DNA of 42,610 nt from Nocardiopsis endophytica (GTDB taxonomy: Bacteria; Actinomycetota; Actinomycetes; Streptosporangiales; Streptosporangiaceae). Shown here piece by piece: positions 1 to 33,650 of the stretch (position 1 is its first letter; each line of letters starts with the position of its first letter). The notes below the pieces were generated by a model. The model was not told the DNA's origin. It searched no databases and was given only the letters and a program-made list of their open reading frames with translations. The position numbers and the translations under genes were made by a program. Where the stretch lies: contig NZ_JAQFWQ010000061.1 of the NCBI RefSeq assembly GCF_027706725.1, positions 1 to 42,610 on the forward strand. Reading direction: 5' to 3'.

Positions 1-55
1 TCGGGGAACCCGGGGTTAAACCGGACACGATAAGCCCGACTTCCCCGAGATCAAC
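1..55. repeat. Dispersed palindrome, copy A (left end cut by window edge)
   Basis: The left arm begins at TCGGGGAA at the window edge and the right arm is TTCCCCGAGATCAAC at 41-55. The reverse complement closely matches copy C at 5830-5891 through the loop as well, including GAAGTCGGGCTTAT, so this is a subfamily I copy in the opposite orientation. Its function is unknown. Transcription termination or a small non-autonomous element are both possible. Confidence 0.75.
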
Positions 56-82
56 GACAGCGCGCCCCCGCACCGCTACCCC

Positions 83-150
83 CTCGTTGATCTCGGGAGA
101 AACGACGCTAAAGCCGGCCCGGTAGGGGCGTTTTTCCCGAGATCAACGAG
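83..150. repeat. Dispersed palindrome, copy B (subfamily II)
   Basis: The arms are CTCGTTGATCTCGGG and CCCGAGATCAACGAG, separated by about 38 bp. The interior contains AAACGACGCTAAAG and is related, in reverse complement, to copy D at 28347-28410. It lies next to copy A in non-coding DNA. Confidence 0.75.
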
Positions 151-216
151 GGGACGGCACCGGGGGTGCGGGCGCCACGAGCGCGGGCGGGCACGCGCCT
201 CCAGTGCCGCGCTGCC

Positions 217-960
217 GCCCGGACCGCGAGCGACCCGGCGGACGGCAGGCAGGGCCAGGGAACCGCCCGGCTCTGGCCGTCGCTGCCCATCACGGTCACC
301 ATGCACACGCGCCGCGCCCGACAGCGCTGCGGTACGGGCCGCTGACCTTCGTCGTCGCCGCCCTCCACCTCACACCCCGGCGGCCCGCCGCCCGGCCGGG
401 GCCCGTAAGCGGGGTACCTGCTCAGCCGCCCCACCCGGACCGGGAGCAGCCAGACGGACGGCAGGCAGGGCCGGGGAACCGCCCAGCTCTGGCCGTCGCT
501 GCCCATCACGGTGACCATGCATACGCGCCGCGGCCGACAGCGCTGCAGTGCGGGCCGCCGACCTGTCCTCGTCGCCGCCTTTGACGCCGCGCCTCGGCGG
601 CCCGCCGCCCGGCCGGGGCCCCGTAAGCGGGGTACCTGCTCAGTCGCCCCGCTCTGGCCGTCGCTGCCCATCACGGTCACCATGCACACGCGCCGCGCCC
701 GACAGCGCTGCGGTACGGGCCGCTGACCTTCGTCGTCGCCGCCCTCCACCTCACACCCCGGCGGCCCGCCGCCCGGCCGGGACCCGTAAGCGGGGTACCT
801 GCTCAGCCGCCCCGCCCGGACCGCGAGCGACCCGGCGGACGGCAGGCACGGCCAGGGGAACCGCCCTGCTCTGGCCGTCGCTGCCCATCACGGTGACCGT
901 GCACACGCGCCGCGGCCGACAGCGCTACCGCGTGGGTCCCCGCCCTCTCGTCGCCGCCCT
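217..960. repeat. Four imperfect tandem repeats, ~216-bp unit
   Basis: The unit beginning CTCTGGCCGTCGCTGCCCAT recurs at 271, 487, 652 and 869, giving spacings of 216, 165 and 217 bp. Each complete unit carries GCCCATCACGGT, then CGACAGCGCT, a cggcccgccgcccggcc tract, and ends near CGTAAGCGGGGTACCTGCTC. A linker with GACGGCAGGCA precedes copies 1, 2 and 4 but is missing before copy 3, which explains the short 165-bp spacing. Copy 4 is truncated at its 3' end. Long open frames cross the region on both strands, but their predicted proteins are Arg/Pro-rich and match nothing I know, so I call it non-coding. Confidence 0.8.
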
Positions 961-1001
961 CACTCCGAAGGGCGGGTGCGAGGCTTGACGTGACCTGGGG
1001 C

Positions 1002-1071
1002 ATAACCGTACAAATAACTCGTCAACATTGATGTTAAGTTCACACACATTTTGATGGAGCGGTGGCGGCGG
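1002..1071 (+). promoter_or_regulatory. AT-rich promoter region with a small palindromic operator
   Basis: This is a sharply AT-rich stretch after the GC-rich repeats, directly before the sugar kinase gene. It contains the perfect inverted repeat AACAT-tg-ATGTT at 1024-1035. Its position fits an operator for a sugar-responsive regulator, but no regulator gene is adjacent. The GGAG at about 1057-1060 would serve as ribosome site for the ATG at 1072. The role is inferred. Confidence 0.4.
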
Positions 1072-2538
1072 ATGGACATCGGAGTGGACGTGGGCACCTC
1101 GCTCACCAAGGCGGTGGCGTTCGACTCCCGAGGGCGCGAGGTCGATACCGCCTCCGTTCCCACGGAGCTCGAACACCCCGCCCCCGGGCACGTCGAGCAG
1201 GACGCCGGGGCGGTCGCCGCCTCCGTCGGCACCGTCGTGCGCGCCCTCGCCGCGCGGTTGGACGAACCCGTCCGGCTCCTCGCCCTCACCGGGCAGGGCG
1301 ACGGGCTCTGGCTGCTTGACGAGCGCGGCCACCCCGTCCGCCGCGCCCTGTCCTGGATGGACGGCCGCGCCGCCGGGATCATCACCGAATGGGAGCGCAG
1401 CGGCGCGGCCGACGACGTGTTCGCCGCCACCGGCGGCGCCCTGTTCCCCGGCGCCCAGGCCGCCCTGCTCGCCTGGGCCGACCGCCACGAGCCGGACGCT
1501 CTGGACCGCGCCACCACCGCCGCGTACTGCAAGGACATGGTGTTCCAGCGCCTCACCGGCGTCCGCGCCACCGACCCCTCCGAGGCCTCGATGCCCTTCG
1601 GCGGCACCCCCGCGGGCTACACCTCCGCCGCGCTGCGCGCCACCGGCCTGGAGCACCGCGCCGGCCTCCTGCCCCCGGTGCACACCGGGCCGCCGCTCGC
1701 CCCGCTCGACGCCGAAGGGGCCGCGCTGACCGGCCTGCCCGAGGGCACCCCGGTCTCCTCCGGCCCCTACGACCTGCCCGCCTGCGCCCGCGGGGCCGGG
1801 GTGGTCCGGCCCGGCGACGGCCTGCTCATCGTCGGCACCACCCTGGCCTGCCAGGTGGCCCGCACCGAGGTGGACACCACCGGCACCCGCGCCGGGATGT
1901 CGCTGGCCACGGGCGAGGGCTCCTACCTGCGCGCGATGCCCGCCATGGTGGGCACGGCCGGCCTGGACTGGGCCCTGCGCCTGACCGGCCGCCCCGTGGA
2001 GGACCTGGAGTCCCTGCTGGAGGGCTCGCCGCCGGGGGCGCGCGGCCTGCGCGTCCTGCCCTACCTGGCCCCGTCGGGCGAGCGCGCCCCGTTCGTGGCG
2101 CCCTATGCCCGCGGGGAGCTGGACGGCCTCAGCCTCCACCACGGCCCCGCCGACGTGGTCCGCGCGATGTGCGAGGGGATCGCCTTCGCCGCCCGGCACT
2201 GCCTGGAGGCCGCCGGCCTGGAGGGGCGCCTGACCCTGTGCGGCGGGGGCGCCCGCAGCCGCGCGTGGGTGGAGGTGTTCTCCGCGGTCCTCGGGCGGCC
2301 CGTGGCCCTGGCGCCGGGCGCGCAGGCCGGTGCGCGCGGGGCCGTCCTGGCGGGCCTGCGCACGCTGGGCGCCGACGTGGACGAGGCGGCGTGGACGGAC
2401 GCCCCTGTGTCGGCCGATCCGCCCGGCGCCCTGGTCGACCACTATGACGCGGGCTACCGCCGCTACCTGGCCCGCCTGGAGGCGTCGCGCCCCCTGTGGG
2501 AGGAGGACGCGGCCACGGCCGCGGCCGCGCTCGGCTGA
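1072..2538 (+). CDS. FGGY-family carbohydrate kinase
   Basis: This is probably an ATP-dependent sugar or polyol kinase of the FGGY family, 488 residues, the usual family length. The N-terminal phosphate-binding motif reads MDIGVDVGTSLTKAV at residues 1-15, followed by LTGQGDGLWLLDERG. The C-terminal ATP/adenosine motif LCGGGARSRAW precedes a gracile AGARGAVLAG segment. The GQGDG motif is more like L-xylulose- or erythritol-type kinases than classical xylulokinase, so I do not name a substrate. I chose ATG 1072 because family proteins begin right at this motif and a GGAG sits 11 bases upstream; TTG 1051 and ATG 1054 are in frame. It stands alone, with no transporter or sugar enzyme beside it. 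Its 3' end is repeated downstream (see 2503-2770). Confidence 0.85.
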   Translation: MDIGVDVGTSLTKAVAFDSRGREVDTASVPTELEHPAPGHVEQDAGAVAASVGTVVRALAARLDEPVRLLALTGQGDGLWLLDERGHPVRRALSWMDGRAAGIITEWERSGAADDVFAATGGALFPGAQAALLAWADRHEPDALDRATTAAYCKDMVFQRLTGVRATDPSEASMPFGGTPAGYTSAALRATGLEHRAGLLPPVHTGPPLAPLDAEGAALTGLPEGTPVSSGPYDLPACARGAGVVRPGDGLLIVGTTLACQVARTEVDTTGTRAGMSLATGEGSYLRAMPAMVGTAGLDWALRLTGRPVEDLESLLEGSPPGARGLRVLPYLAPSGERAPFVAPYARGELDGLSLHHGPADVVRAMCEGIAFAARHCLEAAGLEGRLTLCGGGARSRAWVEVFSAVLGRPVALAPGAQAGARGAVLAGLRTLGADVDEAAWTDAPVSADPPGALVDHYDAGYRRYLARLEASRPLWEEDAATAAAALG

Positions 2539-2770
2539 GATCCCTGGCCGAGGCCTCGGCTCTGGTCGGCCCCACCGCCGCTGCCGCGAGGAGGACGCGG
2601 GTACGGGCACGGGCACGGGCACGGCCGCGGTCGGCTGGGACTCCGGCCTCGACCCACCCCTGCCGCCGGCGCCCCGGGGAGGACGCGGACGTGGGCGCGG
2701 GCACGGCCGCGGCGGCAGCCGGCTGACGCCTTCGGCCGCCCCCGGCTCCGGTCGGCCCCGCCGCCCCGCG
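2503..2770. repeat. Three ~88-bp imperfect repeats derived from the kinase 3' end
   Basis: GAGGACGCGG occurs at 2503-2512, 2591-2600 and 2679-2688, exactly 88 bp apart. Each is followed by a CACGGCCGCGG-type tract and then CGGCTG, which in the first copy holds the kinase stop codon. The first copy lies inside the kinase gene and the other two are intergenic. Copy two also contains a short GGGCAC run (acgggcacgggcacgg). This looks like tandem duplication of the gene's 3' tail. The rest of 2539-2846 shows no gene. Confidence 0.65.
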
Positions 2771-2846
2771 TTCGCCGGTATGTCCCGTTCCTCCTGGCGC
2801 CATAGGGTTGCACCGCGCGGAATGTCGGCCGACAACGCGAGGTTGA

Positions 2847-2866
2847 ATACCGCGAGGGGGTATATT
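2847..2866 (+). promoter_or_regulatory. Putative CsoR operator overlapping a -10 box
   Basis: ATACC-N7-GGTAT at 2847-2863 is an inverted repeat with a GC-rich centre, the general form of CsoR/RcnR-family operators. It runs into TATATT at 2861-2866, a good -10 element. Copper-free CsoR bound here would block its own promoter. If TATATT is the -10, transcription starts near 2873, which supports the downstream ATG at 2904 as the csoR start. The -35 is not obvious. Confidence 0.5.
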
Positions 2867-2903
2867 GATGGACGCAGTCACTGACGAGCAGGGGAGCACC
2901 CGG

Positions 2904-3191
2904 ATGGCGACCTATGGCTACCACGATGACAAGCAGAGCCACATCAACCGGCTGCGCAGGATCGAGGGCCAGGTCCGCGGACTGCAGCGGATGGTCGAGG
3001 ACGACAACTACTGCATCGACATCCTGACCCAGACCGCCGCGGTCAACAAGGCGCTGCGGTCGTTCGCCCTGTCGATGCTGGACGAGCACCTCAAGCACTG
3101 TGTCGGGCACGCCGTCGCCAACGGCGGCGAGGAGGCCGACGAGAAGGTGCGCGAGGCGTCCGAGGCCATCGCCCGCCTGGTGCGCTCCTGA
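2904..3191 (+). CDS. csoR: CsoR-type copper-sensing transcriptional repressor
   Basis: This is a small all-helical DUF156 repressor, 95 residues. The family binds operator DNA when metal-free and releases it on binding Cu(I). The family signature INRLRRIEGQVRGLQRMVE is present. The expected metal ligands are visible: Cys in DNYCIDIL, then His and Cys in HLKHCV. The start at 2904 has GGGGAG 7 bases upstream and lies downstream of the likely -10 box; ATG 2868 (12 residues longer) is the alternative. The gene is followed 31 bp later by a copper chaperone, a typical pair. The usual third member, a CopA P-type ATPase, is not in the window. Confidence 0.88.
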   Translation: MATYGYHDDKQSHINRLRRIEGQVRGLQRMVEDDNYCIDILTQTAAVNKALRSFALSMLDEHLKHCVGHAVANGGEEADEKVREASEAIARLVRS

Positions 3192-3222
3192 CCCCGGAGC
3201 CAACGGACTGAGGAGGCCCCCA

Positions 3223-3429
3223 ATGGCCGGCACCACCATCACGGTCAGCGGCATGACGTGCGAGCACTGCGTGAGCTCGGTCAAGGAAGAGGTCGGCGAG
3301 ATCCCGGGGGTCACCTCGGTCGAGGTCGACCTCCAGAGCGGGCGCGTGGACATCACCAGTGACGAGCCCATCCCCGCCGACCGCCTCGCGGCCGCCGTCG
3401 ACGAGGCCGGGTACACCATCTCCGGCTGA
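3223..3429 (+). CDS. copZ: Heavy-metal-associated (HMA) copper chaperone, CopZ-like
   Basis: This is a 68-residue single-domain HMA protein. The Cu(I)-binding motif GMTCEHC lies at about residues 10-16, followed by the ferredoxin-like fold pattern PGVTSVEVDLQSGRVDI and a C-terminal AAAVDEAGY. CopZ proteins carry cytosolic Cu(I) to an exporting ATPase and to CsoR. A strong AGGAGG ribosome site lies 7 bases before the ATG. It is very likely cotranscribed with csoR. CopZ is the best name, but mercury or other metal specificity is not excluded. Confidence 0.85.
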   Translation: MAGTTITVSGMTCEHCVSSVKEEVGEIPGVTSVEVDLQSGRVDITSDEPIPADRLAAAVDEAGYTISG

Positions 3430-3454
3430 CCCGGCTCCCCGCGGCGACCGACCC

Positions 3455-3481
3455 GCGCGCCCGCCCGCCCGGCGGGCGCGC
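3455..3481. terminator. Hairpin terminator between convergent genes
   Basis: The stem GCGCGCCCGCC / GGCGGGCGCGC (11 bp) has a 5-base loop and is followed on the plus strand by cgtcgtttc. It sits between the convergent copZ and NADH dehydrogenase genes, so it may serve both. Confidence 0.6.
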
Positions 3482-3536
3482 CGTCGTTTCGGGGGCCGGT
3501 GCGCCGCCCCCGCCCGTCAGGCGCCCGCCCCGCCCG

Positions 3537-4886
3537 TCAGGCGTCCGCCAGCCGCTTCGCCTCCGCCTTGGCCGTCGCACCGTCCAGGTAGTGGTCGCCT
3601 TCGATGTCCACGAACGCCGACGGCTTTCCGTGGTGGAACCCCAGGCGCGCCACCTCGCCGCCGAGGATCCCGTCGATCACCCAGTTGGCCAGCACGCGCG
3701 CCCGCGACGGCGCCGACGGCACCGCCGCCAGGTGGTAGGCGCGCGTAACGCCCAGCGCCGGTAGCCCGCTCAGCTCGTACCCCAGCGGCTTGGCCAGCGC
3801 GTCCTTGCCGCTCAGGTCGACCACCAGCCCCATGTCCTTGTGCACGAACGGGGTGAGCGGCCGCCCGAGCAGCGAGGCCACCACGTTGTCGGCGGCCACC
3901 ACCCCCTGCCGCTGGGCGAACTGCGCGGTGGGCGGGCAGTAGGCGCCGCCCTCCTTCACCAGGTCGGGGACCGCGGCGGCGTCCCCCAGGGCGAACACCC
4001 CGTCCAGGCCCTCGGCCGCCATGTCCGCCCCCACGACCAGCCGCCCCCGGTCGGTCTCCCCGTCGAGGGTCCCCATCAGCGGGCTCGGCGTGGTGCCCGC
4101 GGTCCAGATGAGGGTGCGGCAGGGCAGCACCCGGTCGTCGGTGAGCGTCACCCGGTTCTCGGTGACCTCCTTGACCGACACCCCCAGCTTGACCTCGATG
4201 CCCATGCCGCGCAGCAGGTCCAGGGCCTCGTCGCCGAGCTTGGTGCCCAGCTCGGGCAGGATGTGCGGGGCGATGTCCACCAGGTGCCAGCTGATCAGCG
4301 AGCGCAGCTCGGGGTAGCGGCGCGCCATGTCCTCGGTGAGCCGCTCCAGGGAGGCGGCGGTCTCCACGCCGGTGTAGCCGCCGCCGACGACGATGAAGCG
4401 GCACCGCTCCTCGCGCTCGACCGGGTCGTCGCTGGCGTTGGCGAGTTCGAGCTGGGCCAGCACGTGGTCGCGCAGGACCACCGCCTCGGCCAGGTTCTTG
4501 TTGCCGAACGCGTGCTCGCGCAGCCCGGCGATGTCGAAGGCCCGGGTGAGGCTGCCGGGTGCCAGGACGAGGCGGTCGTAGCGCTCGGTGCTCTTCTCGC
4601 CGTTGATCTTCTCGATGACGACGGTGCGGTCGGCGGTGTCGATCCCCATGGCGGTGCCGGGCACCATGCGCGTGCGGCGCAGCACCCGGTGCAGGGACAC
4701 CGCGATCGACTGCGGCGTGAGCAGGCCGGAGGCGACCTGCGGCAGCAGCGGACTGTAGAGCATGTAGTCGTTGGGCGCGACGAGGACGATCTCCGCGGCC
4801 GCCCTCGGGATGCGCCGCTCCAGGCGGCGCAGCGCGTGCAGGCCCGCGAACCCCGCGCCGATCACCACGATCCTGGGACGTGCCAT
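3537..4886 (-). CDS. ndh: Type II NADH dehydrogenase (NDH-2), FAD-dependent
   Basis: This probably transfers electrons from NADH to menaquinone at the inner membrane face without pumping protons. It has 449 residues, the usual length. The FAD-binding Rossmann motif VVIGAGFAGLHAL is at residues 7-19 and a second NAD-binding motif, VVGGGYTGVETAA, at about 165-175. LIWTAGTTPS and GVFALGDAAAVPD are the typical downstream FAD motifs, and CPPTAQFAQRQG matches NDH-2 quinone-site sequences. There is no membrane span; the C-terminus is presumably amphipathic and peripheral. It is a single gene convergent with copZ. Another flavin disulfide-reductase family member is possible, but the overall pattern fits NDH-2 best. 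Confidence 0.85.
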   Translation of the reverse strand: MARPRIVVIGAGFAGLHALRRLERRIPRAAAEIVLVAPNDYMLYSPLLPQVASGLLTPQSIAVSLHRVLRRTRMVPGTAMGIDTADRTVVIEKINGEKSTERYDRLVLAPGSLTRAFDIAGLREHAFGNKNLAEAVVLRDHVLAQLELANASDDPVEREERCRFIVVGGGYTGVETAASLERLTEDMARRYPELRSLISWHLVDIAPHILPELGTKLGDEALDLLRGMGIEVKLGVSVKEVTENRVTLTDDRVLPCRTLIWTAGTTPSPLMGTLDGETDRGRLVVGADMAAEGLDGVFALGDAAAVPDLVKEGGAYCPPTAQFAQRQGVVAADNVVASLLGRPLTPFVHKDMGLVVDLSGKDALAKPLGYELSGLPALGVTRAYHLAAVPSAPSRARVLANWVIDGILGGEVARLGFHHGKPSAFVDIEGDHYLDGATAKAEAKRLADA

Positions 4887-5153
4887 AGCCGAACCACTCC
4901 CCCTTCGACGGCCCGCTGCCCGGGCGCCCCCCTGCCGAAACTAATCCCGTCGCGCGCCGCCGGGGAGGGCGACGCGCCAGCGGAGCACACCTTTTGGCCG
5001 TGATTTGCGGATGGTCGGATTCCGATACCGGAGGTTCAGCCTCAGATGACCCGTCTATGGTCACACAGAGTTACGATTTGATATCGGAACGTGATCGGTG
5101 GGCCCCGTTCCCGCCGATCTCCCGGATCCATACGACCCGAGATAGGGGAGACC
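4887..5153. promoter_or_regulatory. Divergent intergenic region with promoters for ndh and the secreted protein gene
   Basis: The ndh ribosome site GGGGAG lies just upstream of 4886. The segment 5050-5095 is AT-rich, containing agttacgatttgatatc. A GGAAC at about 5086-5090 followed 16 bases later by GTT resembles an ECF sigma promoter for the gene at 5154, but this is a weak match. I see no other element. Confidence 0.3.
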
Positions 5154-5666
5154 ATGAAGCGTGTCAGCAAGGCGGCGGCCGTCGCCCTGATGACCGGCGG
5201 CCTGGTGTGCGCGGGCGCGACCGTCGCATCGGCGGACGGGTACGACGGCTACGACGGCCACCGCACGCAGGCACCGGACACCGACCTGATCGCGGCGATC
5301 ACCGCCGTCTGCGACGCTGCGGCGCAGGTGGAGGGCGAGGCCGGCGCCGAGGGTGAGGCCGCGGCCGACGCCGAGGGCGACGCCGGGGCCGAGGCGGGCG
5401 CCGAGACCGAGCCCGCCGAGGGCGACGCCGAGGCGGACGCGGGCGGCGACGCGGCCACGGACGCGGCCGGTGACGCCCAGGCCGAGCTGGACGCAGCGGT
5501 CAAGACCCTGTGCGAGGCCGCGGGCACGGCCGACCTCGAAGCGCTCGGCGACGCCCTGGGCACGGTGGAAGGCGCCACCGGCGGGGTCGACACCGGCGCG
5601 GTGGACGGCGTCACCGAGGGCGTGGACACCGGAGCGGTGGACGGCGTCACGGGCGCCCTGCCCTAA
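5154..5666 (+). CDS. Secreted acidic Ala/Glu/Asp-rich protein, unknown function
   Basis: This is a 170-residue protein with a clear Sec signal peptide: MKR, then AAAVALMTGGLVCAGATVASA, with a likely cut after ASA at about residue 27. The mature start DGYDGYDG is a small repeat. Residues about 60-110 are almost entirely Ala, Glu, Gly and Asp. Two Cys (in AVCDAAA and TLCEAAG) flank this acidic tract and could form a disulfide. The C-terminus carries two copies of GVDTGAVDGVT. GGGGAG lies just before the ATG. I know no matching family. Calcium binding or a cell-wall spacer role would be speculation. Confidence 0.7.
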   Translation: MKRVSKAAAVALMTGGLVCAGATVASADGYDGYDGHRTQAPDTDLIAAITAVCDAAAQVEGEAGAEGEAAADAEGDAGAEAGAETEPAEGDAEADAGGDAATDAAGDAQAELDAAVKTLCEAAGTADLEALGDALGTVEGATGGVDTGAVDGVTEGVDTGAVDGVTGALP

Positions 5667-5683
5667 CTCCGACCACAGCTGAG

Positions 5684-5716
5684 GGCCGACCGGGCGCGAC
5701 CTGCGCCCGGTCGGCC
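5684..5716 (+). terminator. Strong hairpin terminator
   Basis: A perfect 14-bp stem, GGCCGACCGGGCGC / GCGCCCGGTCGGCC, with a 5-base loop lies 18 bp after the stop of the acidic secreted protein. It has no long T-run, which is common in high-GC actinomycetes. Confidence 0.7.
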
Positions 5717-5829
5717 GTCGTATGCCGGGGAACCGGTCGGCCGCCGCCCGACGCGGCGGGGAGGTTCGTCTTCGCGGGCGGCACTGAGGCAGGCGTTAAG
5801 ACCCGCGCGGATAGGCGGGTGTGCTCGGC

Positions 5830-5891
5830 GTTGATCTCGGGGAAGTCGGGCTTATGCTGTCCGTTTTTACCCCGGCTTCCCCGAGATCAAC
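5830..5891. repeat. Dispersed palindrome, copy C (subfamily I)
   Basis: The 62-bp element has 16-bp perfect arms, GTTGATCTCGGGGAAG and CTTCCCCGAGATCAAC, and a T-containing centre, ccgttttta. It lies between the convergent secreted-protein and TetR genes. The rest of 5717-5981 shows no gene. Confidence 0.8.
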
Positions 5892-5981
5892 GACACGGGG
5901 GCGGCGGTCGGCGGCGGAGGCGGCGGCGGACCCCTCCGCCCTCGGAGACGCATTGGGCGAGTCGCAGGCCCGCTACCCCCT

Positions 5982-6563
5982 CTACTCCCCCTCGTCGACC
6001 AGCAGGGCCGCCCGGCCCATGCGGAAGAGCAGTTCGGCCATCGCGTCCGGCGCCAGCTCGCCCGCGCTGTGCGGGGTCGAGTTGAGCAGCCCGAAGGCCG
6101 CGTGCACCGCCGCGCGCAGGGCCAGCCGCCCCCGGGCGGGCCGCAGGCGGGCGAGCACGCCCACCCATTCCTCGGCGTAGCCGCGCTGGAGCCGCCGGAT
6201 CCGGCGCCGCTCCGGCTCGGGCACGTTGTCCAGCTCGCGGTCGTGCACGGTGATCAGCGCGGGCTCCCCCAGGGCGAAGGCGATGTGCCCGCGCAACAGC
6301 CCTTCCAGGGCCTCTTCGGGCCCGGCCGCGCCGGCCACCACGCGCTCGCCCTGCTCGGCCAGGCGCTCGCTGACCTCCAGCAGCATCGCCGCCAGCAGCG
6401 CCTCCTTGCCGGGGAAGTGCCGGTACAGCGCCGGCCCGGTGGTGCCGACCGCGCGCCCCAGGTCCTCGATGGAGGCCCCGTGGTAGCCGCGCGCGGCGAA
6501 CAGCCCCGCGGCCGCCCGCAGGATCGCGGCGCGGCGGGAGCCCGCCGCCGCCCGCTCGGCCAT
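5982..6563 (-). CDS. TetR-family repressor of the acyl-CoA carboxylase operon
   Basis: This is a 193-residue TetR regulator. The N-terminal DNA-binding domain (about residues 8-55) reads RRAAILRAAAGLFAARG, then the recognition-helix region GTTGPALYRHFPGKEALL. The rest is a helical ligand domain resembling the actinobacterial regulators of fatty-acid and branched-chain acyl-CoA genes (SACE_7040-like). It is transcribed away from the carboxylase operon, and the 129-bp gap contains two matching inverted repeats. It therefore probably represses both itself and that operon and is released by an acyl-CoA. GGGGAG lies a few bases before the ATG. The ligand is inferred only from gene context. Confidence 0.85.
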   Translation of the reverse strand: MAERAAAGSRRAAILRAAAGLFAARGYHGASIEDLGRAVGTTGPALYRHFPGKEALLAAMLLEVSERLAEQGERVVAGAAGPEEALEGLLRGHIAFALGEPALITVHDRELDNVPEPERRRIRRLQRGYAEEWVGVLARLRPARGRLALRAAVHAAFGLLNSTPHSAGELAPDAMAELLFRMGRAALLVDEGE

Positions 6564-6657: not shown

Positions 6658-6661
6658 ACGA

Positions 6662-6679: not shown

Positions 6680-6692
6680 CAGAGGGGAACCG

Positions 6693-27668: not shown

Positions 27669-27703
27669 GCTGACCCCATAGCCGTACCCGGGGAGGCCTG
27701 CAC

Positions 27704-28009
27704 ATGGCGTTGCCATCGGAGCTCACACCGACGGCCGTGCGGGCCGCCATCGCCCGGCTCCGCGATCCGGAGCTGCTCCGGCGATTCGACGAGGACCTGG
27801 ACGCCGCCTTCGAACGGGCACGGCGGGAGTCCGACCTCTCCGTGCTCATCGACACAGTGCGCCGCTGGTGGTTCGAGGCGGACGCGCGGAAGGACCCCGA
27901 GCGGTACCGCGAATTCACTCACCGGGTCCAGCGCTACCTCGATGAGGGCCCTCCGCCGCCCGAAGAGCGGGTCGGCCGGGCCGAGATCCTCGAACGGTTC
28001 GGCCTGTGA
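27704..28009 (+). CDS. DUF6247-like small protein
   Basis: This is a 101-residue soluble helical protein resembling the actinobacterial DUF6247 family, which often occurs in two-gene units of unknown function. The sequence has an Arg/Asp-rich RLRDPELLRRFDEDLDAAFERARR segment, split here by its charge pattern into two helices, and then TVRRWWFEADARKD. It ends EILERFGL. GGGGAGG lies about 9 bases before the ATG. Its stop overlaps the next gene's GTG. In the corresponding mycobacterial locus the space between ipdC and fadA6 holds different genes, so this pair looks like a local insertion. Confidence 0.6.
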   Translation: MALPSELTPTAVRAAIARLRDPELLRRFDEDLDAAFERARRESDLSVLIDTVRRWWFEADARKDPERYREFTHRVQRYLDEGPPPPEERVGRAEILERFGL

Positions 28010-28352
28010 CCGCGAACCGGCCCCGATCGGCACTGATCGTGCAGCCCCCGCCCGACGTCGCGGCCCTCCGGGCGGCGCTCGCGCGGATCGCCCCGTCCCG
28101 GCTGGCCGAGTTCCGTTCGCAGCTGGCAGAGGCCACGGTGAATGCCGAGAGCATGGACTCAACCGCCCCGATCCGCTGCTTCATCCACCACTGGTCGGTC
28201 TGGTCGCCATCGCACGCTTCCCCGAGCGGGAGCGCCGCCTCCATGAGCTGGAGGCGGTCGTCGACAGCGGGTCCCCCGACTCCCGGGACGCCATCAGGGA
28301 GATCAGCTCTCTGCTCCGCCAGGCGGAGGCGGACGCGGGCCTGCGTCGTTGA
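28006..28352 (+). pseudogene. Frameshifted partner of the DUF6247-like gene
   Basis: The frame starting at GTG 28006 reads ALRAALARIAPSRLAEF then FIHHWSV, and runs out of sense near 28200. The next frame continues with LVAIARFPERERRLHELEAV and ends at 28352. Joined by a one-base deletion at about 28197-28203, they give a protein of about 115 residues of the type usually paired with DUF6247. It could be a real mutation, a sequencing error or, less likely, programmed frameshifting. The stop TGA (28350-28352) lies inside palindrome copy D. The start overlaps the upstream stop (GTGA). Confidence 0.6.
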
Positions 28353-28410
28353 TCTCGGGAAAAGCGCCCCTAAAAGCGGCCCGGTAGCGTCGTTTCTCCC
28401 GAGATCAACG
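28347..28410. repeat. Dispersed palindrome, copy D (subfamily II)
   Basis: The arms CGTTGATCTCGGGA and TCCCGAGATCAACG are separated by about 36 bp, including aaaagcgcccctaaaagcgg. It overlaps the stop codon of the frameshifted gene on the left and ends 14 bp before the stop of the convergent fadA6 gene. A bidirectional terminator role is plausible. Confidence 0.8.
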
Positions 28411-28424
28411 CGGAGCGCACCCGC

Positions 28425-29648
28425 CTATCCGCGCGGGCTCTTAGGCCCCTGCCTCCCGCCGACCCTCTCGATCACCGTCACGTTCGCCTGGCCGCCGCCC
28501 TCGCACATGGTCTGTAGGCCCCACCTGCCCCCGGTGCGCTCCAGCTCGTGCAGCAGGGTCACCATCAGCCGCGCCCCGGTCGCGCCCAGCGGGTGGCCCA
28601 GCGCGATCGCTCCCCCGTTCGGGTTCACCCGCTCCGGGTCGGCGCCGGTCTCCTTCAGCCATGCCAGCACCACCGCCGCGAACGCCTCGTTCACCTCGAT
28701 CGCGTCCATGTCGCCGATGGCCATCCCGCACCGGTCGAGCGCACGCGCCGTCGCCGGGATCGGCGCCGACAGCATCCGGATCGGGTCCTCCCCCAGCGCC
28801 GACATGTGGTGGATGCGTGCCCTGGGCACCAGGCCGTGCTCCTCCAGCGCGCGCTCGCCCGCGATGAGCAGCGCCGCCGCACCGTCGGTCACCTGGGAGG
28901 CCGTCGCGGCCGTGTGAACACCCCCGGGGACCAGCACCGGCAGCCCGGCCATCCTCTCCGGTGACGTGTTCCGCCGCGGCCCCTCGTCGACGGCCACCCC
29001 GCCGACCGGGGCCACCTCCCGCAGGAACCGGCCCTCGTCGGCCGCGCGCACTGCCCGCCGGTGCGACTCGGCGGCGTAGTCCTCCAGCTCCCGCCGGGTC
29101 AGCCCCCAGTCCCGGGCGATCATCTCCGCCCCCGCGAACTGGGACACCGGCGCGTCCCCGTACCTGTCACGCCAGCCGAGCGACCCGCTGAAGGGTCCCT
29201 CGGCCCCGGGGCCGCCCGGGTCACGTCCGTCGGCCTGCGCGAGCGCCTGTCCGGCCCGCATGGCCGCGCCGATCGGCACCGCCGACATGCTCTGCACCCC
29301 GCCCGCGACCACCAGGTCCGCCGTGCCCGCCAGCACCGCCTGCGCCGCGAAGTGCACCGCCTGCTGCCCCGACCCGCACTGGCGGTCCACCGTCACACCG
29401 GGCACGTGTTCGGGCAGCCCGGCCGCCAGCCACGCCGTGCGCGCGATGTCCCCCGACTGCGGCCCGAGCGCGTCCACGCACCCGAACACCACGTCCTCCA
29501 CGGCCCCGGGGTCGGCCCCCGAGCGCTCCATGAGGGCGGAGAGCACACGGGCGCCCAGGTCGGCCGGGTGCACACCGGCCAGGGCGCCTCCCGCGCGCCC
29601 CCGCCCGACCGGGGTGCGGACAGCGTCGACGATGTACGCCTCGGGCAT
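28425..29648 (-). CDS. fadA6: FadA6-like thiolase
   Basis: This is a 407-residue thiolase cleaving a beta-ketoacyl-CoA with free CoA in the ring-C/D pathway. The nucleophile is Cys91 in VDRQCGSGQQA. The C-terminal catalytic residues are in VNEAFAAVVLAWL, GGAIALGHPLGATGARL (His) and MCEGGGQANVTV (Cys). AAGGAG lies 5 bases before the ATG. It follows kstR2 on the same strand after 36 bp, as in M. tuberculosis (Rv3556c/Rv3557c). FadA6 is the best name by synteny; general acetyl-CoA acetyltransferase activity is the fallback. Confidence 0.86.
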   Translation of the reverse strand: MPEAYIVDAVRTPVGRGRAGGALAGVHPADLGARVLSALMERSGADPGAVEDVVFGCVDALGPQSGDIARTAWLAAGLPEHVPGVTVDRQCGSGQQAVHFAAQAVLAGTADLVVAGGVQSMSAVPIGAAMRAGQALAQADGRDPGGPGAEGPFSGSLGWRDRYGDAPVSQFAGAEMIARDWGLTRRELEDYAAESHRRAVRAADEGRFLREVAPVGGVAVDEGPRRNTSPERMAGLPVLVPGGVHTAATASQVTDGAAALLIAGERALEEHGLVPRARIHHMSALGEDPIRMLSAPIPATARALDRCGMAIGDMDAIEVNEAFAAVVLAWLKETGADPERVNPNGGAIALGHPLGATGARLMVTLLHELERTGGRWGLQTMCEGGGQANVTVIERVGGRQGPKSPRG

Positions 29649-29684
29649 GGTGCGCTCCTTAAGGGGGCGTGGCGGGGGCGGGCG

Positions 29685-30308
29685 TCACTCGCCGGGCGCC
29701 TGGATGCCCTCCAGGACCATGGCGAGGTACTGCTTGGCGATGTCGGAGGCGGGCAGGCGGCCGTGCGGGTCGTACCAGTTGGCCGCGACCCACACGGTGT
29801 CGCGGATGAACCGGTAGACCAGGGAGGCGTCCAGGTCGGCGCGGAACGCCCCCTCGTCCGCGCCCCGGGTGAGCAGGTCCATCCACATGGAGCGGAACCG
29901 GGTCTGGGACTCGTCGAGGTAGGCGAAGCGCGGGTTGAGCGCCAGGTGGCGGGACTCGTTCTGGTACAGCACGACGGCGGGGCGGTGCCGGTGGATCGAC
30001 GCGAACGACGCCTCGACCAGGCGCTCCAGGGTGGCGCGTGCGTCCCCGCCCTCGGCGAGGATCGCGTCGTAGGAGGTCCACAGGTCGTCCAGGAAGCCCG
30101 ACAGGATCTCGTCGGCCATCGACTCCTTGGAGTCGAAGTGGTAGTAGAGGCTGCCCGCCAGCATCCCTGCGGCGTCGGCCACCTGGCGGATACTGGTGGC
30201 CGCGTACCCCTGCCGGGCGAAGACCTCGGCCGCCGTCTCCAGGATCTCGGCCCGCCGCCGCTCCCGTGCGGCCGCGGTGCGCTCGGCGTCCCTGCGCCGT
30301 GGGCTCAT
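29685..30308 (-). CDS. kstR2: KstR2-like TetR repressor of steroid ring C/D catabolism
   Basis: In mycobacteria KstR2 represses the HIP genes and is released by HIP-CoA. The protein here has 207 residues. The HTH region is AATSIRQVADAAGMLAGSLYYHF at about residues 38-60 (given here as one motif of the fold: SIRQVADAAG then SLYYHF). The C-terminal half carries LVYRFIRDTVWVAANWY and AKQYLAMVLEGI, strikingly like mycobacterial KstR2. Its gene sits between fadA6 and ipdF exactly as in M. tuberculosis. The two AnCAA-N4-TTGnT sites in this locus are its likely targets. Palindrome copy E lies just upstream, so the kstR2 promoter is either there or shared with ipdF. Confidence 0.88.
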   Translation of the reverse strand: MSPRRRDAERTAAARERRRAEILETAAEVFARQGYAATSIRQVADAAGMLAGSLYYHFDSKESMADEILSGFLDDLWTSYDAILAEGGDARATLERLVEASFASIHRHRPAVVLYQNESRHLALNPRFAYLDESQTRFRSMWMDLLTRGADEGAFRADLDASLVYRFIRDTVWVAANWYDPHGRLPASDIAKQYLAMVLEGIQAPGE

Positions 30309-30346
30309 CGTTCGTCGCCTTCTCGTCCGTCGTCATCGGTGACCGT

Positions 30347-30408
30347 GTTGATCTCGGGGAACCCGTTCTCATGACGTCCGTTTCAACCCCGACTTCCCCG
30401 AGATCAAC
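30347..30408. repeat. Dispersed palindrome, copy E (subfamily I)
   Basis: GTTGATCTCGGGGAA and TTCCCCGAGATCAAC enclose a loop related to copy C (ccgtttcaacccc). It is 62 bp, the same length as copy C. Unlike copies C, D and F it lies between two genes on the same strand, ipdF and kstR2, and could therefore separate their transcription. Confidence 0.8.
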
Positions 30409-30428
30409 GAGGCGGGCCGTGCGGGTCC

Positions 30429-31238
30429 TCACGCGCGCTGGCTGGAGACCGGGACCACCTCCCCCGTCATGTACGACGCGTAGTCGCTGGCGAGGAAGAC
30501 GATCACGTTGGCCACCTCCCACGGCTCGGCCGCCCGGCCGAACGCCTCCCGCCGGGCCAGCTCCTCCAGCAGCTCCGCCGGCGCCGACTTGGCCAGGTTC
30601 TCGTGCACGGCCAGGCTCGGCGCGACCGCGTTGATCCGCACGCCGTGCGGCGCCGCCTCCATCGCCGCGCAGCGGGTCAGGGCCATCACCCCCGCCTTCG
30701 CGGCGGCGTAGTGCGCCTGCCCGGGCTGGGCCCGCCACCCCAGCACCGAGGCGTTGTTGACCACGGCACCGCCGCCCCGCGGCACCATCCGCCGCATCGC
30801 GGCCCGGGTGCAGCGCATGGTGCCGGTGAGGGTCACCTCCAGCACCCGGGACCACTCGGCGTCCTCCATCTCGGCCAGGGGCGCGGTCCCGCCGAGCCCG
30901 GCGTTGTTCACCACCACGTCCGGCGGGCCGAACCGCCGCTCTGCCGCGTCGAAGGCGGCCTGCACGTGCTCTTCGTCGGTGACGTCGCAGCGCACCGCCG
31001 CCACGCGGTCGGCGCCGAACTCGGCGGCCAGCGCGCGCTCGCACTCGGCCAGGCGGCGCTCGTGCGCGTCGCTGACCACCACGCGCGCCCCCTCCTCCAG
31101 CAGGCGCCGCGCCGCCGCCCCGCCGATGCCGGTCCCGGCCGCGGCGGTGACCAGCGCCGTGCGGCCCCGGAGCAGCCCGTGGCCGGGGCGGGGGACGGCG
31201 CCAGGGGCCGCAGGGCGGCCCTGCTCGGGGTTCATCAT
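30429..31238 (-). CDS. ipdF: IpdF-like short-chain dehydrogenase (5-OH-HIP-CoA/HIP-CoA redox)
   Basis: This SDR interconverts the 5-oxo and 5-hydroxy forms of HIP-CoA in mycobacteria. It has 269 residues. It starts with a GHGLLRGRTALVTAAAGTGIG block (the last part being the cofactor motif), NNAGLGGTAPLAEM follows, and the active site is NNASVLGWRAQ plus YAAAKAGVMALTRC. The C-terminus has FGRAAEPWEVANVIVFLASD. These blocks closely match Rv3559c as I recall it. Two consecutive ATGs (31238, 31235) are both possible starts. A KstR2-like site lies 13 bp upstream in the divergent promoter region shared with ipdE1. Confidence 0.9.
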   Translation of the reverse strand: MMNPEQGRPAAPGAVPRPGHGLLRGRTALVTAAAGTGIGGAAARRLLEEGARVVVSDAHERRLAECERALAAEFGADRVAAVRCDVTDEEHVQAAFDAAERRFGPPDVVVNNAGLGGTAPLAEMEDAEWSRVLEVTLTGTMRCTRAAMRRMVPRGGGAVVNNASVLGWRAQPGQAHYAAAKAGVMALTRCAAMEAAPHGVRINAVAPSLAVHENLAKSAPAELLEELARREAFGRAAEPWEVANVIVFLASDYASYMTGEVVPVSSQRA

Positions 31239-31250
31239 GGGTGCTACCCT

Positions 31251-31264
31251 ACCAAACGATTGTT
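31251..31264. promoter_or_regulatory. Putative KstR2 operator 2
   Basis: ACCAAACGATTGTT fits AnCAA-N4-TTGnT and shares CAAACG-W-TTGTTAGAAAG with the reverse complement of site 1. It lies in the 87-bp divergent region between ipdF and ipdE1, where it can control both directions. Confidence 0.7.
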
Positions 31265-31325
31265 AGAAAGAATGAGCGGAGCCGCCCCGGCGCCCCGGGG
31301 CGCCGGCCACCGGGAGGGCCCACCC

Positions 31326-32528
31326 GTGGACCTCGACCTGACCCCCGCCCAGCGCGCCTTCCGCAATGAGGTGCGCGACTGGCTGCGCCGCAACGCCCCC
31401 GCCGACCCGCTGCCGCCCATGGACGGCGCCGAAGGGTTCGAGGCCCACCGCGACTGGGAGCGCACCCTGGGGCGGGCCCACCTGTCGGCCGTCACCTGGC
31501 CGACCCGGTACGGCGGCCGCGCCGCCGGAGCGGTCGAGGGGCTGCTCTTCGACGAGGAGTACCACGCGGCCGGCGCGCCCGAGCGCGTCTCCCAGAACGG
31601 CATCGGCCTGCTGGCCCCCACGCTCCTGGCCCACGGCACCCCCGAGCAGTGCGCGCGCGTACTGCCCCCGATGGCCGCCGGGGAGGTCGTCTGGGCGCAG
31701 GCCTGGTCCGAGCCCGGGGCCGGAAGCGACCTGGCCGCGATCCGCTCCCGCGCCGAGCGCGCCGAGGACCCCGAGCGCGGCCCCGGCTGGCTCCTCCACG
31801 GCCAGAAGACGTGGAGCTCGCGCGCCGCCTTCGCCGACCGCGGCTTCGGGCTCTTCCGCACCTCCCCCGAGCGCCACCGCGGCCTGACGTACCTCATGTT
31901 CGGCCTGGACGCCCCCGGCCTGACCCGCCGCCCCATCGGCCGCCTGGACGGCCGCCCCGCCTTCGCCGAGCTGTTCTTCGACGGGGTGTTCGTGCCCGAC
32001 GCCGACGTCATCGGCGCCCCCGGCGACGGGTGGCGGATCGCCATGGGCACCGCCGCCGGGGAGCGCGGGACCGGCTTGCGCGGCCCCGGCCGGTTCCTGG
32101 CCTCCGCCCACCGGCTGGCGGCGCTGCGCCGCGAGCGCGAGCACCGAGGCGGGCGCGGAGCCGGGCTCAGAGCCGGGCACGGGGGCGCGGCCGGGAGCGA
32201 AGGCACGGAGGCGGCCGACCGGGTCGCCCGCGCGTGGATCGGCGCCCAGGCCTACCGCCTGCACGCCTATGCCGCCGCCTGCGCGGACGGGCCCCCGGAC
32301 GCGGGCGAGGCGAGCATGAACAAGCTCTTCTGGTCCGAGCTCGACACCGACCTGCACGAGACCGCGCTGGACCTGCTCGGCCCCGAGGCCGAACTCGACG
32401 GGCCGTGGATGCGCGGCCACGTGTTCTCCCTGGCCGGGCCCGTCTACGCCGGGACCAACGAGATCCAGCGCGACATCGTCGCCGAGCGCGTGCTGGGCCT
32501 GCCCCGGCCCCGGAGGAGTGACCGCTGA
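31326..32528 (+). CDS. ipdE1: IpdE1-like acyl-CoA dehydrogenase (FadE30), alpha subunit
   Basis: With IpdE2 this forms a heterotetrameric FAD enzyme that dehydrogenates 5-OH-HIP-CoA, the first beta-oxidation step on the propionyl side chain. It has 400 residues. Motifs: SAVTWPTRYGGRAAG, QAWSEPGAGSDLAAIRSRAE, HGQKTWSSRAAFADRG and SLAGPVYAGTNEIQRDIV; the position of the common catalytic Glu is Ala (YAGT), as in long-chain and steroid-type enzymes. GTG 31326 has GGAGGG 7 bases upstream and gives the usual N-terminus MDLDLTPAQRAF; ATG 31272 is an alternative. Stop and next start overlap (TGATG), coupling it to ipdE2. Confidence 0.85.
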   Translation: MDLDLTPAQRAFRNEVRDWLRRNAPADPLPPMDGAEGFEAHRDWERTLGRAHLSAVTWPTRYGGRAAGAVEGLLFDEEYHAAGAPERVSQNGIGLLAPTLLAHGTPEQCARVLPPMAAGEVVWAQAWSEPGAGSDLAAIRSRAERAEDPERGPGWLLHGQKTWSSRAAFADRGFGLFRTSPERHRGLTYLMFGLDAPGLTRRPIGRLDGRPAFAELFFDGVFVPDADVIGAPGDGWRIAMGTAAGERGTGLRGPGRFLASAHRLAALRREREHRGGRGAGLRAGHGGAAGSEGTEAADRVARAWIGAQAYRLHAYAAACADGPPDAGEASMNKLFWSELDTDLHETALDLLGPEAELDGPWMRGHVFSLAGPVYAGTNEIQRDIVAERVLGLPRPRRSDR

Positions 32529-33592
32529 TGCGCTTCGCCCCCACCCGCGAGCAGCTCCTGTTCTCCCGCACCCTGGACGACCTGCTGGGCGCCGGCGCGC
32601 CCGGGGCGGCCGCGCGCGCCTGGTCGCGCGGCGACCGCGGCCCCGGCGAACGCCTGTGGCGCGGGCTCGCCGAGGCGGGCCTGTTCGGCCTGGCCGTGCC
32701 CGAGGAGCACGGCGGTGTGGGCCTGCGGCCGGTCGAACTCGCCCTGGGCATGGTCGAGGCCGGGCGGCACGCCGTCCCCGGCCCCCTGGTCGAGACGGCG
32801 GCCGCGGCGGTCCTGCTCGGCGGGGCGGGCCCGGTCCCCGGAACCGGCGGCGCACACCCCGCGGCGCGGATCGCCGACGGCGGGCTGGCGGTCTCCCTTG
32901 CCGTCCCGCCGTGGACGCCGCACGCCCTGGACGCCGACTGGGCCGGAGCGGTCATCGTGCTGGAGGGCGGGGCGGTACACGCCGCCGAGCCGGTAGAGCC
33001 CCTGGAATCGCTCGACCCGGCCCGAAAGCCGTGGCGGGTGCGGGCCGCCGCTCCCCTGCCGGGCGGCCCGCCAGGCGCCCCGACCGGAGACGCGGCTGAC
33101 GCCCCCCACGGCGGAACCGCCGCCCTCGCCTTCGACCTGGCCGTGCTGTGCTGCGCCGCGCAGGCGCTCGGCGCCGGGGAGCGCCTGCTGGAGGCCACCG
33201 TCGAGCACGTGAAGACCCGGCACCAGTTCGGCCAGGCCGTGGGCGGGTTCCAGGCGGTGCGCCACCGGCTGGCCGACACCGCGACCGCCCTGCACTTCGC
33301 CCGGCCGCTGGTCCTGGGGGCCGCCGCCGCGTTCGGGGCCGGTACGGAGGACCCGGCCACCGCCCTCCTGCGCGCCCGCGACGCCTCCGCCGCCAAGGCC
33401 GCCGCCTGCGACGCCGCCCACACCGCCGCGCGGACCGCCCTGCAGCTGCACGGCGCCATCGGCTACACCGACGAGTTCCCGCCCTCCCTGTGGATCCGCA
33501 AGGCGCACGCGCTCCGGCGCGCCTGGGGTTCCCCGGCCGCGCACCGCGCCCGCGTCCTGGAGGCCCTGGACCACGCGGCCGCCCACCGATGA
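32528..33592 (+). CDS. ipdE2: IpdE2-like acyl-CoA dehydrogenase (FadE33), beta subunit
   Basis: This 354-residue FadE-like protein is the probable beta partner of IpdE1. It is shorter than ordinary acyl-CoA dehydrogenases, with N-terminal FAPTREQLLFSRTLDDLLG, LFGLAVPEEHGGVGL, and the C-terminal FAD/dimer segments HVKTRHQFGQAVGGFQAV and LQLHGAIGYTDEFPPSLW. It lacks the middle substrate-binding Ser/Asp pattern of alpha subunits, typical for beta subunits. In mycobacteria ipdE1 and ipdE2 are in separate operons; here they overlap. The stop TGA lies inside palindrome copy F. I name it by partnership; another FadE of the regulon (FadE32) cannot be excluded. Confidence 0.78.
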   Translation: MRFAPTREQLLFSRTLDDLLGAGAPGAAARAWSRGDRGPGERLWRGLAEAGLFGLAVPEEHGGVGLRPVELALGMVEAGRHAVPGPLVETAAAAVLLGGAGPVPGTGGAHPAARIADGGLAVSLAVPPWTPHALDADWAGAVIVLEGGAVHAAEPVEPLESLDPARKPWRVRAAAPLPGGPPGAPTGDAADAPHGGTAALAFDLAVLCCAAQALGAGERLLEATVEHVKTRHQFGQAVGGFQAVRHRLADTATALHFARPLVLGAAAAFGAGTEDPATALLRARDASAAKAAACDAAHTAARTALQLHGAIGYTDEFPPSLWIRKAHALRRAWGSPAAHRARVLEALDHAAAHR

Positions 33593-33650
33593 TCTCGACG
33601 GAAGTGCTGTCAAAACCGCCGGAATGACAGCACTCCTGTCGAGATCATCG
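33587..33650. repeat. Dispersed palindrome, copy F (subfamily III)
   Basis: The long imperfect arms CGATGATCTCGAC...AGTGCTGTCA and TGACAGCACT...GTCGAGATCATCG form a 64-bp element. It keeps the TGATCTCG frame of the other copies but has a different interior. It supplies the ipdE2 stop codon and ends 22 bp before the stop of the convergent phospholipase D-like gene. Confidence 0.8.

What the first reader, a model, noticed from the sequence alone, without database searches (positions are those of the whole stretch)
1..33650. A family of six ~62-68-bp palindromes, always between genes
Copies at 1-55, 83-150, 5830-5891, 28347-28410, 30347-30408 and 33587-33650 share the frame TGATCTCG...CGAGATCA. 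They form at least three subfamilies: GGGGAAG-type arms, GGGA-AAACG-type arms, and GAC...TGCTGTCA arms. Loop sequences are also conserved within a subfamily (A/C/E and B/D), and lengths are nearly constant. No copy lies inside a gene, and three (C, D, F) separate convergent genes. This fits either a mobile non-autonomous repeat (MITE/REP-like) or a common bidirectional terminator/processing element that evolves arms in a compensatory way. I cannot name a described family.
Basis: partly seen in the sequence, partly recalled or inferred. Interest (0 to 1): 0.72.

Follow-up and report, generated by a model that had tools for sequence, protein, structure and literature searches.

The report
Dispersed DNA hairpins with a nuclease
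The window carries copies of a short hairpin-forming DNA repeat that has multiplied hundreds of times between genes of this Nocardiopsis genome, and its likely partner is an unusual DNA-cutting enzyme whose gene, in many actinobacteria, sits between two copies of the host's own version of the hairpin.

Summary
The palindromes belong to a family with 367 exact frame copies in this Nocardiopsis-group genome (control 0). All 57 sampled copies have a 58-bp frame, none lies inside a called gene, and most sit just behind gene ends.

They are mobile: window sites D, E and F hold no complete copy in any relative where both flanks align. The usual REP mobiliser, a Y1/RAYT transposase, was not found in any of eight high-copy genomes of a distant family.

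Another partner appears: an AbiEi-like domain fused to a Vsr/DUF559-type PD-(D/E)XK nuclease. Of 70 homologues examined across the class, 31 have a palindrome on both sides, and in all 31 the two share sequence; the control found 0 of 917 ordinary genes. Palindrome class follows nuclease clade, even within one genome. An unrelated hairpin read off a distant homologue's locus recurs at 63 places in that genome and none in ten others. Another such prediction failed, and orphan populations exist.

It works like REP/RAYT with an unrelated enzyme; enzyme action is inferred. I found no published description.

The parts
1..55 (.). Copy A: A-type palindrome truncated by the contig start (left end of the frame missing)
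   Evidence: window starts at contig C61 base 1
85..148 (.). Copy B: B-type palindrome (58-bp frame 88-145 plus 3 bp on each side); A and B form a close pair as at other places in the genome
5829..5892 (.). Copy C: A-type palindrome (frame 5832-5889) between convergent genes
28347..28410 (.). Copy D: B-type palindrome (frame 28350-28407) between convergent genes; part of a longer ~100-bp unit seen at 12 other fetched loci
   Evidence: no palindrome at the orthologous spot in G001 and G005, the two relatives in which both flanks align
30346..30409 (.). Copy E: A-type palindrome (frame 30349-30406) behind the upstream gene of a tandem pair on the minus strand
   Evidence: both flanks align in five relatives, none of which has a complete palindrome there; G005 has a left half of a B-type one next to other inserted DNA
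33587..33650 (.). Copy F: F-type palindrome (frame 33590-33647); its TGA is the stop codon of the gene to its left; convergent genes
   Evidence: no palindrome in G001, G003 or G005, the relatives in which both flanks align in one place

Best explanation
The palindromes are the dispersed, non-coding form of a mobile element whose coding form is palindrome - nuclease gene - palindrome. The nuclease has an AbiEi-like, presumably DNA-binding, front and a Vsr/DUF559-type PD-(D/E)XK back. I propose that it recognises its own hairpin class, mainly by the constant base of the stem (CG(T/A)TGATCTCG in Nocardiopsis) plus fixed stem length and imperfections. It would nick or cut the DNA or an extruded hairpin, and copies would be pasted by repair into intergenic DNA. 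Copies survive mainly just behind gene ends, where they do no harm and can even provide the stop codon. SHOWN: one family in hundreds of copies with strict length; gain and loss between relatives; nuclease homologues flanked by matching palindromes in many genera; palindrome class tracking nuclease clade. INFERRED: that the nuclease moves the hairpins, how it cuts, and that copying uses a hairpin intermediate.
For: 367 frames against 0 in the control. All 6 genomes of the genus carry frames, 12 to 367 each. Unoccupied orthologous sites: of 10 N. halophila/N. suaedae copies mapped by script to my stretches of this genome, 5 are occupied here and 5 are not, one of the latter with a decayed left half; three more read by hand give 2 occupied and 1 not. 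One occupied site has flanks 98-99% alike and equal arms, but the hairpin loop is inverted. The nuclease locus is palindrome-gene-palindrome in G000, N. halophila (G003) and N. suaedae (G005), with both palindromes B-type in the first two and both A-type in the third. Of 70 homologues, 31 have palindromes on both sides, 17 on one, 22 on neither, at a threshold (17) above anything in 474 shuffled windows (max 14); in all 31 the two share a 12-44 bp string. Control: 0 of 917 called genes of this genome have a matching pair, 1 an unrelated pair. Palindrome class follows nuclease clade: seven 72-bp TTGGAG-type loci in one fully supported clade and nine 61-bp ATGGAG-type loci in another, the two clades coexisting in four genomes. 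Prediction from L190: 63 places in G345, two of them beside that gene, and 0 in 10 other genomes. Prediction in family f14: 13 places in 4 of 12 f14 genomes, three of them at a nuclease locus, and 0 in 8 other genomes. Reverse prediction: a palindrome pair 932 bp apart in G292 encloses a homologue 73% identical to L196, with a 28-residue gap. Co-occurrence over 246 genomes 14/2/9/221, Fisher p 4e-15; genomes not used in the profile 4/1/9/220, p 3e-5.
Against: 22 of 70 homologues showed no flanking palindrome, so the wider protein family does other things too (one of the 22, L191, has a palindrome that missed my search window by a base). One of three sequence predictions failed: in G151 only a nuclease-flanking copy exists. 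The best prediction (G345) rests on a distant homologue: no Pfam match, profile-profile probability 99.5% at 27% identity, long branch in the tree. Orphan populations: in G001 (12 copies), G002 (33) and G004 (15) only distant homologues without flanking palindromes of this family were found. G274 has 113 copies, and no close homologue was found (only 9 of 101 candidates were scored). Two of three palindrome pairs picked for spacing did not enclose a nuclease (G002: a PNP-family gene; G274). At subtype level the match fails within Nocardiopsis: N. halophila has B-type flanks, but its 49 sampled copies are 21 A, 10 B, 1 F and 17 other; N. suaedae has A-type flanks, but its 19 sampled copies are 12 B, 6 A and 1 other (that sample is biased by the search pattern). 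One class (GATCTTGAC) occurs in two separate nuclease clades. The control genes come from one genome only. No clean junction or target duplication could be read. No biochemistry.
Confidence: 0.62

Rival explanations
1. Palindromes first, nuclease second: the nuclease gene is a homing-type parasite that invades existing palindromes (leaving one copy on each side) and does not itself disperse them; dispersal is by an unknown or older mechanism.
For: Palindrome populations without a close nuclease found; subtype mismatch in Nocardiopsis; the nuclease module at one locus carries different palindrome types in related species.
Against: Palindrome class tracks nuclease clade across families and within genomes; co-occurrence in a class-wide sample; a hairpin unrelated to GTTGATC, read off a homologue's locus, has 63 places in its own genome and none in ten others.
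Confidence: 0.18
2. The palindromes are selected 3'-end elements: bidirectional terminators, mRNA 3'-end protectors or processing sites that spread because they are useful.
For: Strong bias to gene ends: convergent 27, tandem 24, divergent 2, against 11, 25 and 17 expected from gap lengths, chi-square p 2e-8, 4 edge copies left out. In 20 of 24 tandem gaps the copy lies nearer the upstream stop. Median distance to the nearest stop is 29 bp, n 51. Folds are stable, -28 to -45 kcal/mol for the five complete window copies.
Against: No T-run in 57 of 57; sites are gained and lost between relatives; no GTTGATC frame in any of the f18 genomes sampled; purging of insertions from promoters and genes gives the same bias.
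Confidence: 0.1
3. Operator or regulon: the AbiEi-like domain binds the palindromes as a repressor or nucleoid protein, the copies being its binding sites.
For: AbiEi matches in all six proteins scanned against PADLOC and weaker ones in Pfam; a palindrome often lies upstream of the nuclease start.
Against: Copies are rare in divergent, promoter-bearing gaps; a second palindrome lies at the 3' end of the nuclease gene and holds its stop codon in at least 11 of 31; catalytic-type residues are conserved.
Confidence: 0.05
4. A classical REP/RAYT system mobilised by a Y1 transposase.
For: Anatomy: extragenic, palindromic, clustered, high copy; one Y1_Tnp gene in the own genome.
Against: Y1_Tnp was found in none of the eight high-copy f19 genomes searched; no GTAG-type unpaired tag at the hairpin foot.
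Confidence: 0.03

Closest known systems
REP / REPIN elements with RAYT (TnpA-REP) transposases (PMC2817692, PMC3116915, PMC8266576; passages seen)
   Same: Short extragenic palindromes in high copy; subfamilies per genome; enzyme gene flanked by two copies of the repeat; enzyme clade and repeat class go together; stems with conserved imperfections; arms differ between hosts but stay palindromic
   Different: Enzyme is AbiEi plus Vsr/DUF559 PD-(D/E)XK, not a HuH Y1 transposase; unit is one ~64-bp palindrome (other sizes elsewhere), not a 20-50 nt REP with a GTAG tetranucleotide; flanking copies are not always inverted (15 inverted, 10 direct, 6 undecided of 31); found here in actinobacteria
MITEs (non-autonomous DDE-transposon derivatives; recalled, and passage)
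   Same: Short, non-coding, inverted-repeat, intergenic; presence/absence between relatives
   Different: No target duplication could be read here; the associated gene is a PD-(D/E)XK nuclease, not a DDE transposase
Vsr-type REase domain MTES_1575 (PMC3710099, passages seen) and AbiEi antitoxins
   Same: Protein domains of the partner gene
   Different: Described there in defence or conflict settings; none of the passages seen mentions dispersed palindromes
Vsr-fold homing endonucleases (recalled, no call)
   Same: A Vsr-like fold used by a selfish gene
   Different: Not tested here; those act in introns or inteins, not with hairpin populations

Membership tests
REP/RAYT (TnpA-REP) system | Mobiliser is a Y1 HuH transposase (PF01797) | tested here: not met
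   Y1_Tnp found in 9 of 37 genomes and in none of the nine f19 genomes of the set, eight of them high-copy; the flanked gene is AbiEi/MTES_1575
REP/RAYT (TnpA-REP) system | Palindrome preceded by a conserved GTAG-type tetranucleotide | tested here: not met
   Pairing and conservation end together at the foot (CG(T/A)TGATC...); no unpaired conserved tag in the 57-copy profile
REP/RAYT (TnpA-REP) system | Enzyme gene flanked by two copies of its repeat | tested here: met
   31 of 70 homologues on both sides, sharing sequence; control 0 of 917
REP/RAYT (TnpA-REP) system | Flanking repeats always in inverted orientation | tested here: not met
   15 inverted, 10 direct, 6 undecided of 31
REP/RAYT (TnpA-REP) system | Dispersed extragenic copies in high number | tested here: met
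   367 frames; 0 of 57 sampled copies inside called genes
MITE of a DDE insertion sequence | Termini shared with an autonomous DDE element, and a target-site duplication | tested here: inconclusive
   No clean junction among orthologous sites; no search for DDE relatives was made
Intrinsic terminator | GC-rich hairpin followed by a T-run | tested here: not met
   0 of 57 have 6 or more T in the 12 nt after the hairpin on either strand
AbiEi / Vsr-like (MTES_1575, DUF559) protein | Profile match and conserved catalytic-type residues | tested here: met
   MTES_1575 in 17, DUF559 in 11 and AbiEi_1 in 10 of 21 members at E up to 0.01, many below the curated cut-off; invariant E222, D256, Y272, G274, H277, D284
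AbiEi / Vsr-like (MTES_1575, DUF559) protein | Vsr fold | tested here: inconclusive
   Predicted model unusable, pLDDT 34.5; weak PDB profile match 3hrl, endonuclease-like, E 0.0023

The most novel reading that the evidence does not exclude
A new class of bacterial mobile DNA: hairpin populations dispersed by a restriction-type (AbiEi plus Vsr-like PD-(D/E)XK) nuclease instead of any transposase or recombinase, spread over several actinobacterial families, with each nuclease lineage keeping its own hairpin class. It would have evolved independently of REP/RAYT to the same design.
Probability: 0.5. Interest if true: 0.92.

Novelty: new variant of a known kind. Interest (0 to 1): 0.8.

Why it matters
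If right, the REP/RAYT design (an enzyme gene flanked by, and maintaining, a population of dispersed hairpins) is not an oddity of one transposase family but has arisen twice with unrelated enzymes. It would give a role to a nuclease family that is abundant in actinobacteria (179 of 246 genomes at E up to 1e-20) and mostly unnamed. It would explain hundreds of intergenic palindromes in Nocardiopsis and in an unnamed family (f19). It would also offer a system to ask how a nuclease without a known strand-transfer activity could multiply DNA. The relatives with unoccupied, occupied, swapped and loop-inverted sites make the mechanism directly testable.

Tried and rejected
Y1/RAYT partner: rejected. 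Terminator as sole explanation: weakened. Stop codons in the arms: the arm tops read TTA/TAA, CTA/TAG, TCA/TGA in the three subfamilies; noted but not pursued. Literature: ten searches in an open-access library only. None of the papers listed was on these repeats or on this nuclease with palindromes; lists were cut (20 of 101 shown; 20 of 800; 20 of 22). PMC3733652 does not contain any of six actinobacterial terms asked; of PMC8049555 only the outline was seen. Structure: prediction on two sequences gave pLDDT 34.5, so no fold search was made. Viral collection: the search for related loci with the profile returned an error, not conserved enough. Plasmids: no match for the N. suaedae protein, four weak ones for an f19 homologue; an attempt to name family f19 by plasmid similarity failed. 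Site C in relatives: flanks map to different fetched stretches, not used. Rows dropped: fifteen weak-arm matches before the 57-copy count; L174 in alignment A1 was in a wrong frame and was redone; L197 in the tree was probably in a wrong frame, is the long branch there and is not counted; L188 and L193 were too short for the tree. Palindrome classes on the tree were set by eye. The 40 loci were picked from the top of the places listed (a cut list), leaving out most hits at contig ends and several others, so 31 of 70 is not a random-sample rate. The nuclease gene of this genome was not called by my gene script and is not among the 917 controls.
Full report
WHAT IS THERE. Copies B-F of the finding are real hairpins; copy A is cut by the contig start. 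The genome of the window has 367 exact TGATCTCG...CGAGATCA frames, the reversed control none. The organism is in the Nocardiopsis group: a pattern scan of named genomes hit only N. halophila and N. suaedae, records very near the window's own genome being possibly left out, and contig lengths identify these two with genus members G003 and G005. In 1.14 Mb of this genome I kept 57 copies, every one with a 58-bp frame. Conservation continues about 3 bp beyond the frame on each side, so the element is about 64 bp: the outer ten frame pairs are paired in 95-100% of copies, some inner pairs are weak as a rule (offsets 11, 14, 17, 19), and the loop is about 12 nt. Between subfamilies the arms change together, for example G-C and A-T at offset 8, and G-C and C-G at offset 9.

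WHERE THEY SIT. None of the 57 overlaps a called gene by more than 15 bp; 27 lie between convergent, 24 between tandem and 2 between divergent genes, against 11, 25 and 17 expected from gap lengths; 4 more are at contig edges. The median distance to the nearest stop codon is 29 bp, and in 7 of 57 the stop codon is the TGA of the element itself, copy F included. Gene calls are mine. No copy has a T-run behind it.

THEY MOVE. Window sites D, E and F show no complete palindrome in any relative in which both flanks align: two relatives for D (G001, G005), five for E, three for F (G001, G003, G005). At E, G005 has a left half of a B-type palindrome next to other inserted DNA. In the other direction, of ten N. 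halophila/N. suaedae copies whose two flanks map to my stretches of this genome, five are occupied here and five are not, one of these with a decayed left half; three more sites read by hand gave two occupied and one not. At one occupied site the flanks are 98-99% identical and the arms equal, but the loop is inverted. At the two sites on either side of one gene, N. suaedae has A-type palindromes where this genome and N. halophila have B-type.

THE GENE BETWEEN THEM. That gene encodes a 372-residue protein in this genome (L078:8466-9584, minus strand). It has weak matches to AbiEi_1 and to REase_MTES_1575, a domain described as a novel Vsr-type REase (PMC3710099, passages). Across 21 homologues 17 match MTES_1575, 11 DUF559 and 10 AbiEi_1, many below the curated cut-offs, and acidic and histidine residues of the nuclease part are invariant. 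Of ten proteins scanned, NCBIfam gave eight no match and two a DUF559 match far below its cut-off. PADLOC calls the front part AbiEi in all six proteins scanned.

THE ASSOCIATION IS GENERAL. A BLAST-type search found homologues in 22 of 37 chosen genomes. A finder that knows nothing of the sequence, with a threshold (17) above the maximum of 474 shuffled windows (14), was run on 70 homologues: 30 and 40 from the top of the list. It found palindromes on both sides in 31, on one side in 17 and on neither in 22; in every one of the 31 the two palindromes share a 12-44 bp string. One of the 22, L191, has a palindrome that missed the window by a base. The same test on 917 called genes of this genome found one gene with palindromes on both sides and none with matching ones. 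The flanking palindromes have many different sequences. Most end in GTTGATC or a variant, but others begin GTCCCTGCTCGA, GTTGAGTGCGACGAA, CGAGTGCTCCG or CAGAGAAGTGGGG. In the nuclease genes, too, the stop codon lies in the first 12 bp of the downstream palindrome in at least 11 of 31.

PALINDROME CLASS FOLLOWS NUCLEASE CLADE. In a tree of 68 homologues the seven loci with 72-bp TTGGAG-type palindromes lie in one clade with full support and nine loci with 61-bp ATGGAG-type palindromes in another; both kinds occur in the same genomes (G326, G283, G220, G255), so host ancestry alone does not explain it. A tenth ATGGAG-type locus, L197, was probably mis-framed in that tree and is not counted. Another class, GATCTTGAC, occurs in two separate clades. 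Classes were set by eye.

PREDICTIONS. From a locus of G345 (L190, a distant homologue: no Pfam match; profile-profile probability 99.5%) I predicted dispersed copies of GTCCCTGCTCGA...TCGAGCAGGGAC: 63 places in G345, two of them beside that gene, and none in ten other genomes, two of its own family included. From f14 loci: 13 places in 4 of 12 f14 genomes, three of them at a nuclease locus, and none in 8 others. From G151: only one flanking copy itself, so that prediction failed. In the reverse direction I took three palindrome pairs by spacing alone: the pair in G292 encloses a homologue 73% identical to L196, with a 28-residue gap; the pair in G002 encloses a PNP-family gene, and the pair in G274 no nuclease.

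CO-OCCURRENCE. Among 246 genomes of the class, 14 of the 16 with a strong nuclease match (E up to 1e-100) have five or more GTTGATC frames, against 9 of the other 230; Fisher p 4e-15. Some of these genomes supplied the profile; leaving them out gives 4 of 5 against 9 of 229, p 3e-5. At most nine candidates per genome were scored, so misses are possible.

WHAT SPEAKS AGAINST. G001, G002 and G004 of the same genus hold 12, 33 and 15 copies with only distant homologues found, none flanked by these palindromes; G274 holds 113 with no close one found. Within Nocardiopsis the subtype beside the nuclease is not the commonest dispersed subtype in the N. halophila and N. suaedae samples, which are biased by the search pattern. 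For the F-type of the window I found no partner in the genus. No junction, target duplication or fold could be established.

HOW IT MOST LIKELY WORKS. I take the coding element to be palindrome-nuclease-palindrome and the dispersed palindromes to be its non-coding offspring. The nuclease presumably binds the constant stem foot and cuts or nicks there; the inverted loop suggests that a hairpin or cruciform is handled, though quasi-palindrome template switching (recalled) would also invert a loop. Insertions into genes and promoters are purged, which leaves gene ends. The enzyme steps are inference.

COMPARISON. RAYTs are described as always flanked by two inverted REPs (PMC2817692, passages), with repeat and transposase diversity put down to co-evolution (PMC3116915, passages) and with hairpin recognition through GTAG and, in one group, a bulge in the stem (PMC8266576, passages). 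The present system shares the design but fails defining tests: enzyme, tag and strict inversion. I therefore file it as working like REP/RAYT, not as a member. Ten literature searches in an open-access library listed nothing on it; most subscription journals and preprints were not searchable.

Noticed in passing
window ~22041; L072 ~1793; L079 ~19177; L080 ~2549; L084 ~1873 and ~18300: A second intergenic imperfect-palindrome family (core GAATCGACGC...GCGTCGATTTCAC), at some of these places right beside clusters of the GTTGATC palindromes.
   Followed up: no
window 28340-28447 and L116-L127: Copy D is part of a ~100-bp unit repeated in many places at 87-99% identity, with what looks like an outer inverted repeat (AGAGCCCGCGCGGATAGGCGGG-like) around the palindrome in several copies: a composite element.
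   Followed up: partly
L111 (G005:C43), orthologous to window site E: At this spot N. suaedae has what looks (by eye) like the end of an IS30-type transposase gene next to a left half of a B-type palindrome, as if an IS had landed in the repeat.
   Followed up: no
window 1-150; C2:21890+21981; C4:17534+17625; C6:1630+1722; C10:77472+77564 (G000): Palindromes of different subfamilies recur as close pairs about 91 bp apart, like a composite unit.
   Followed up: no
G005:C123 (L191/L245): N. suaedae has a second, diverged nuclease with its own perfect palindrome type (CGCCGAGTTACGTCTGGTGGGCGGAATTC) on one side.
   Followed up: partly
L077 ~17500, L089 ~6269: Separate GC-rich hairpins, terminator-like in place, directly beside palindromes.
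   Followed up: no
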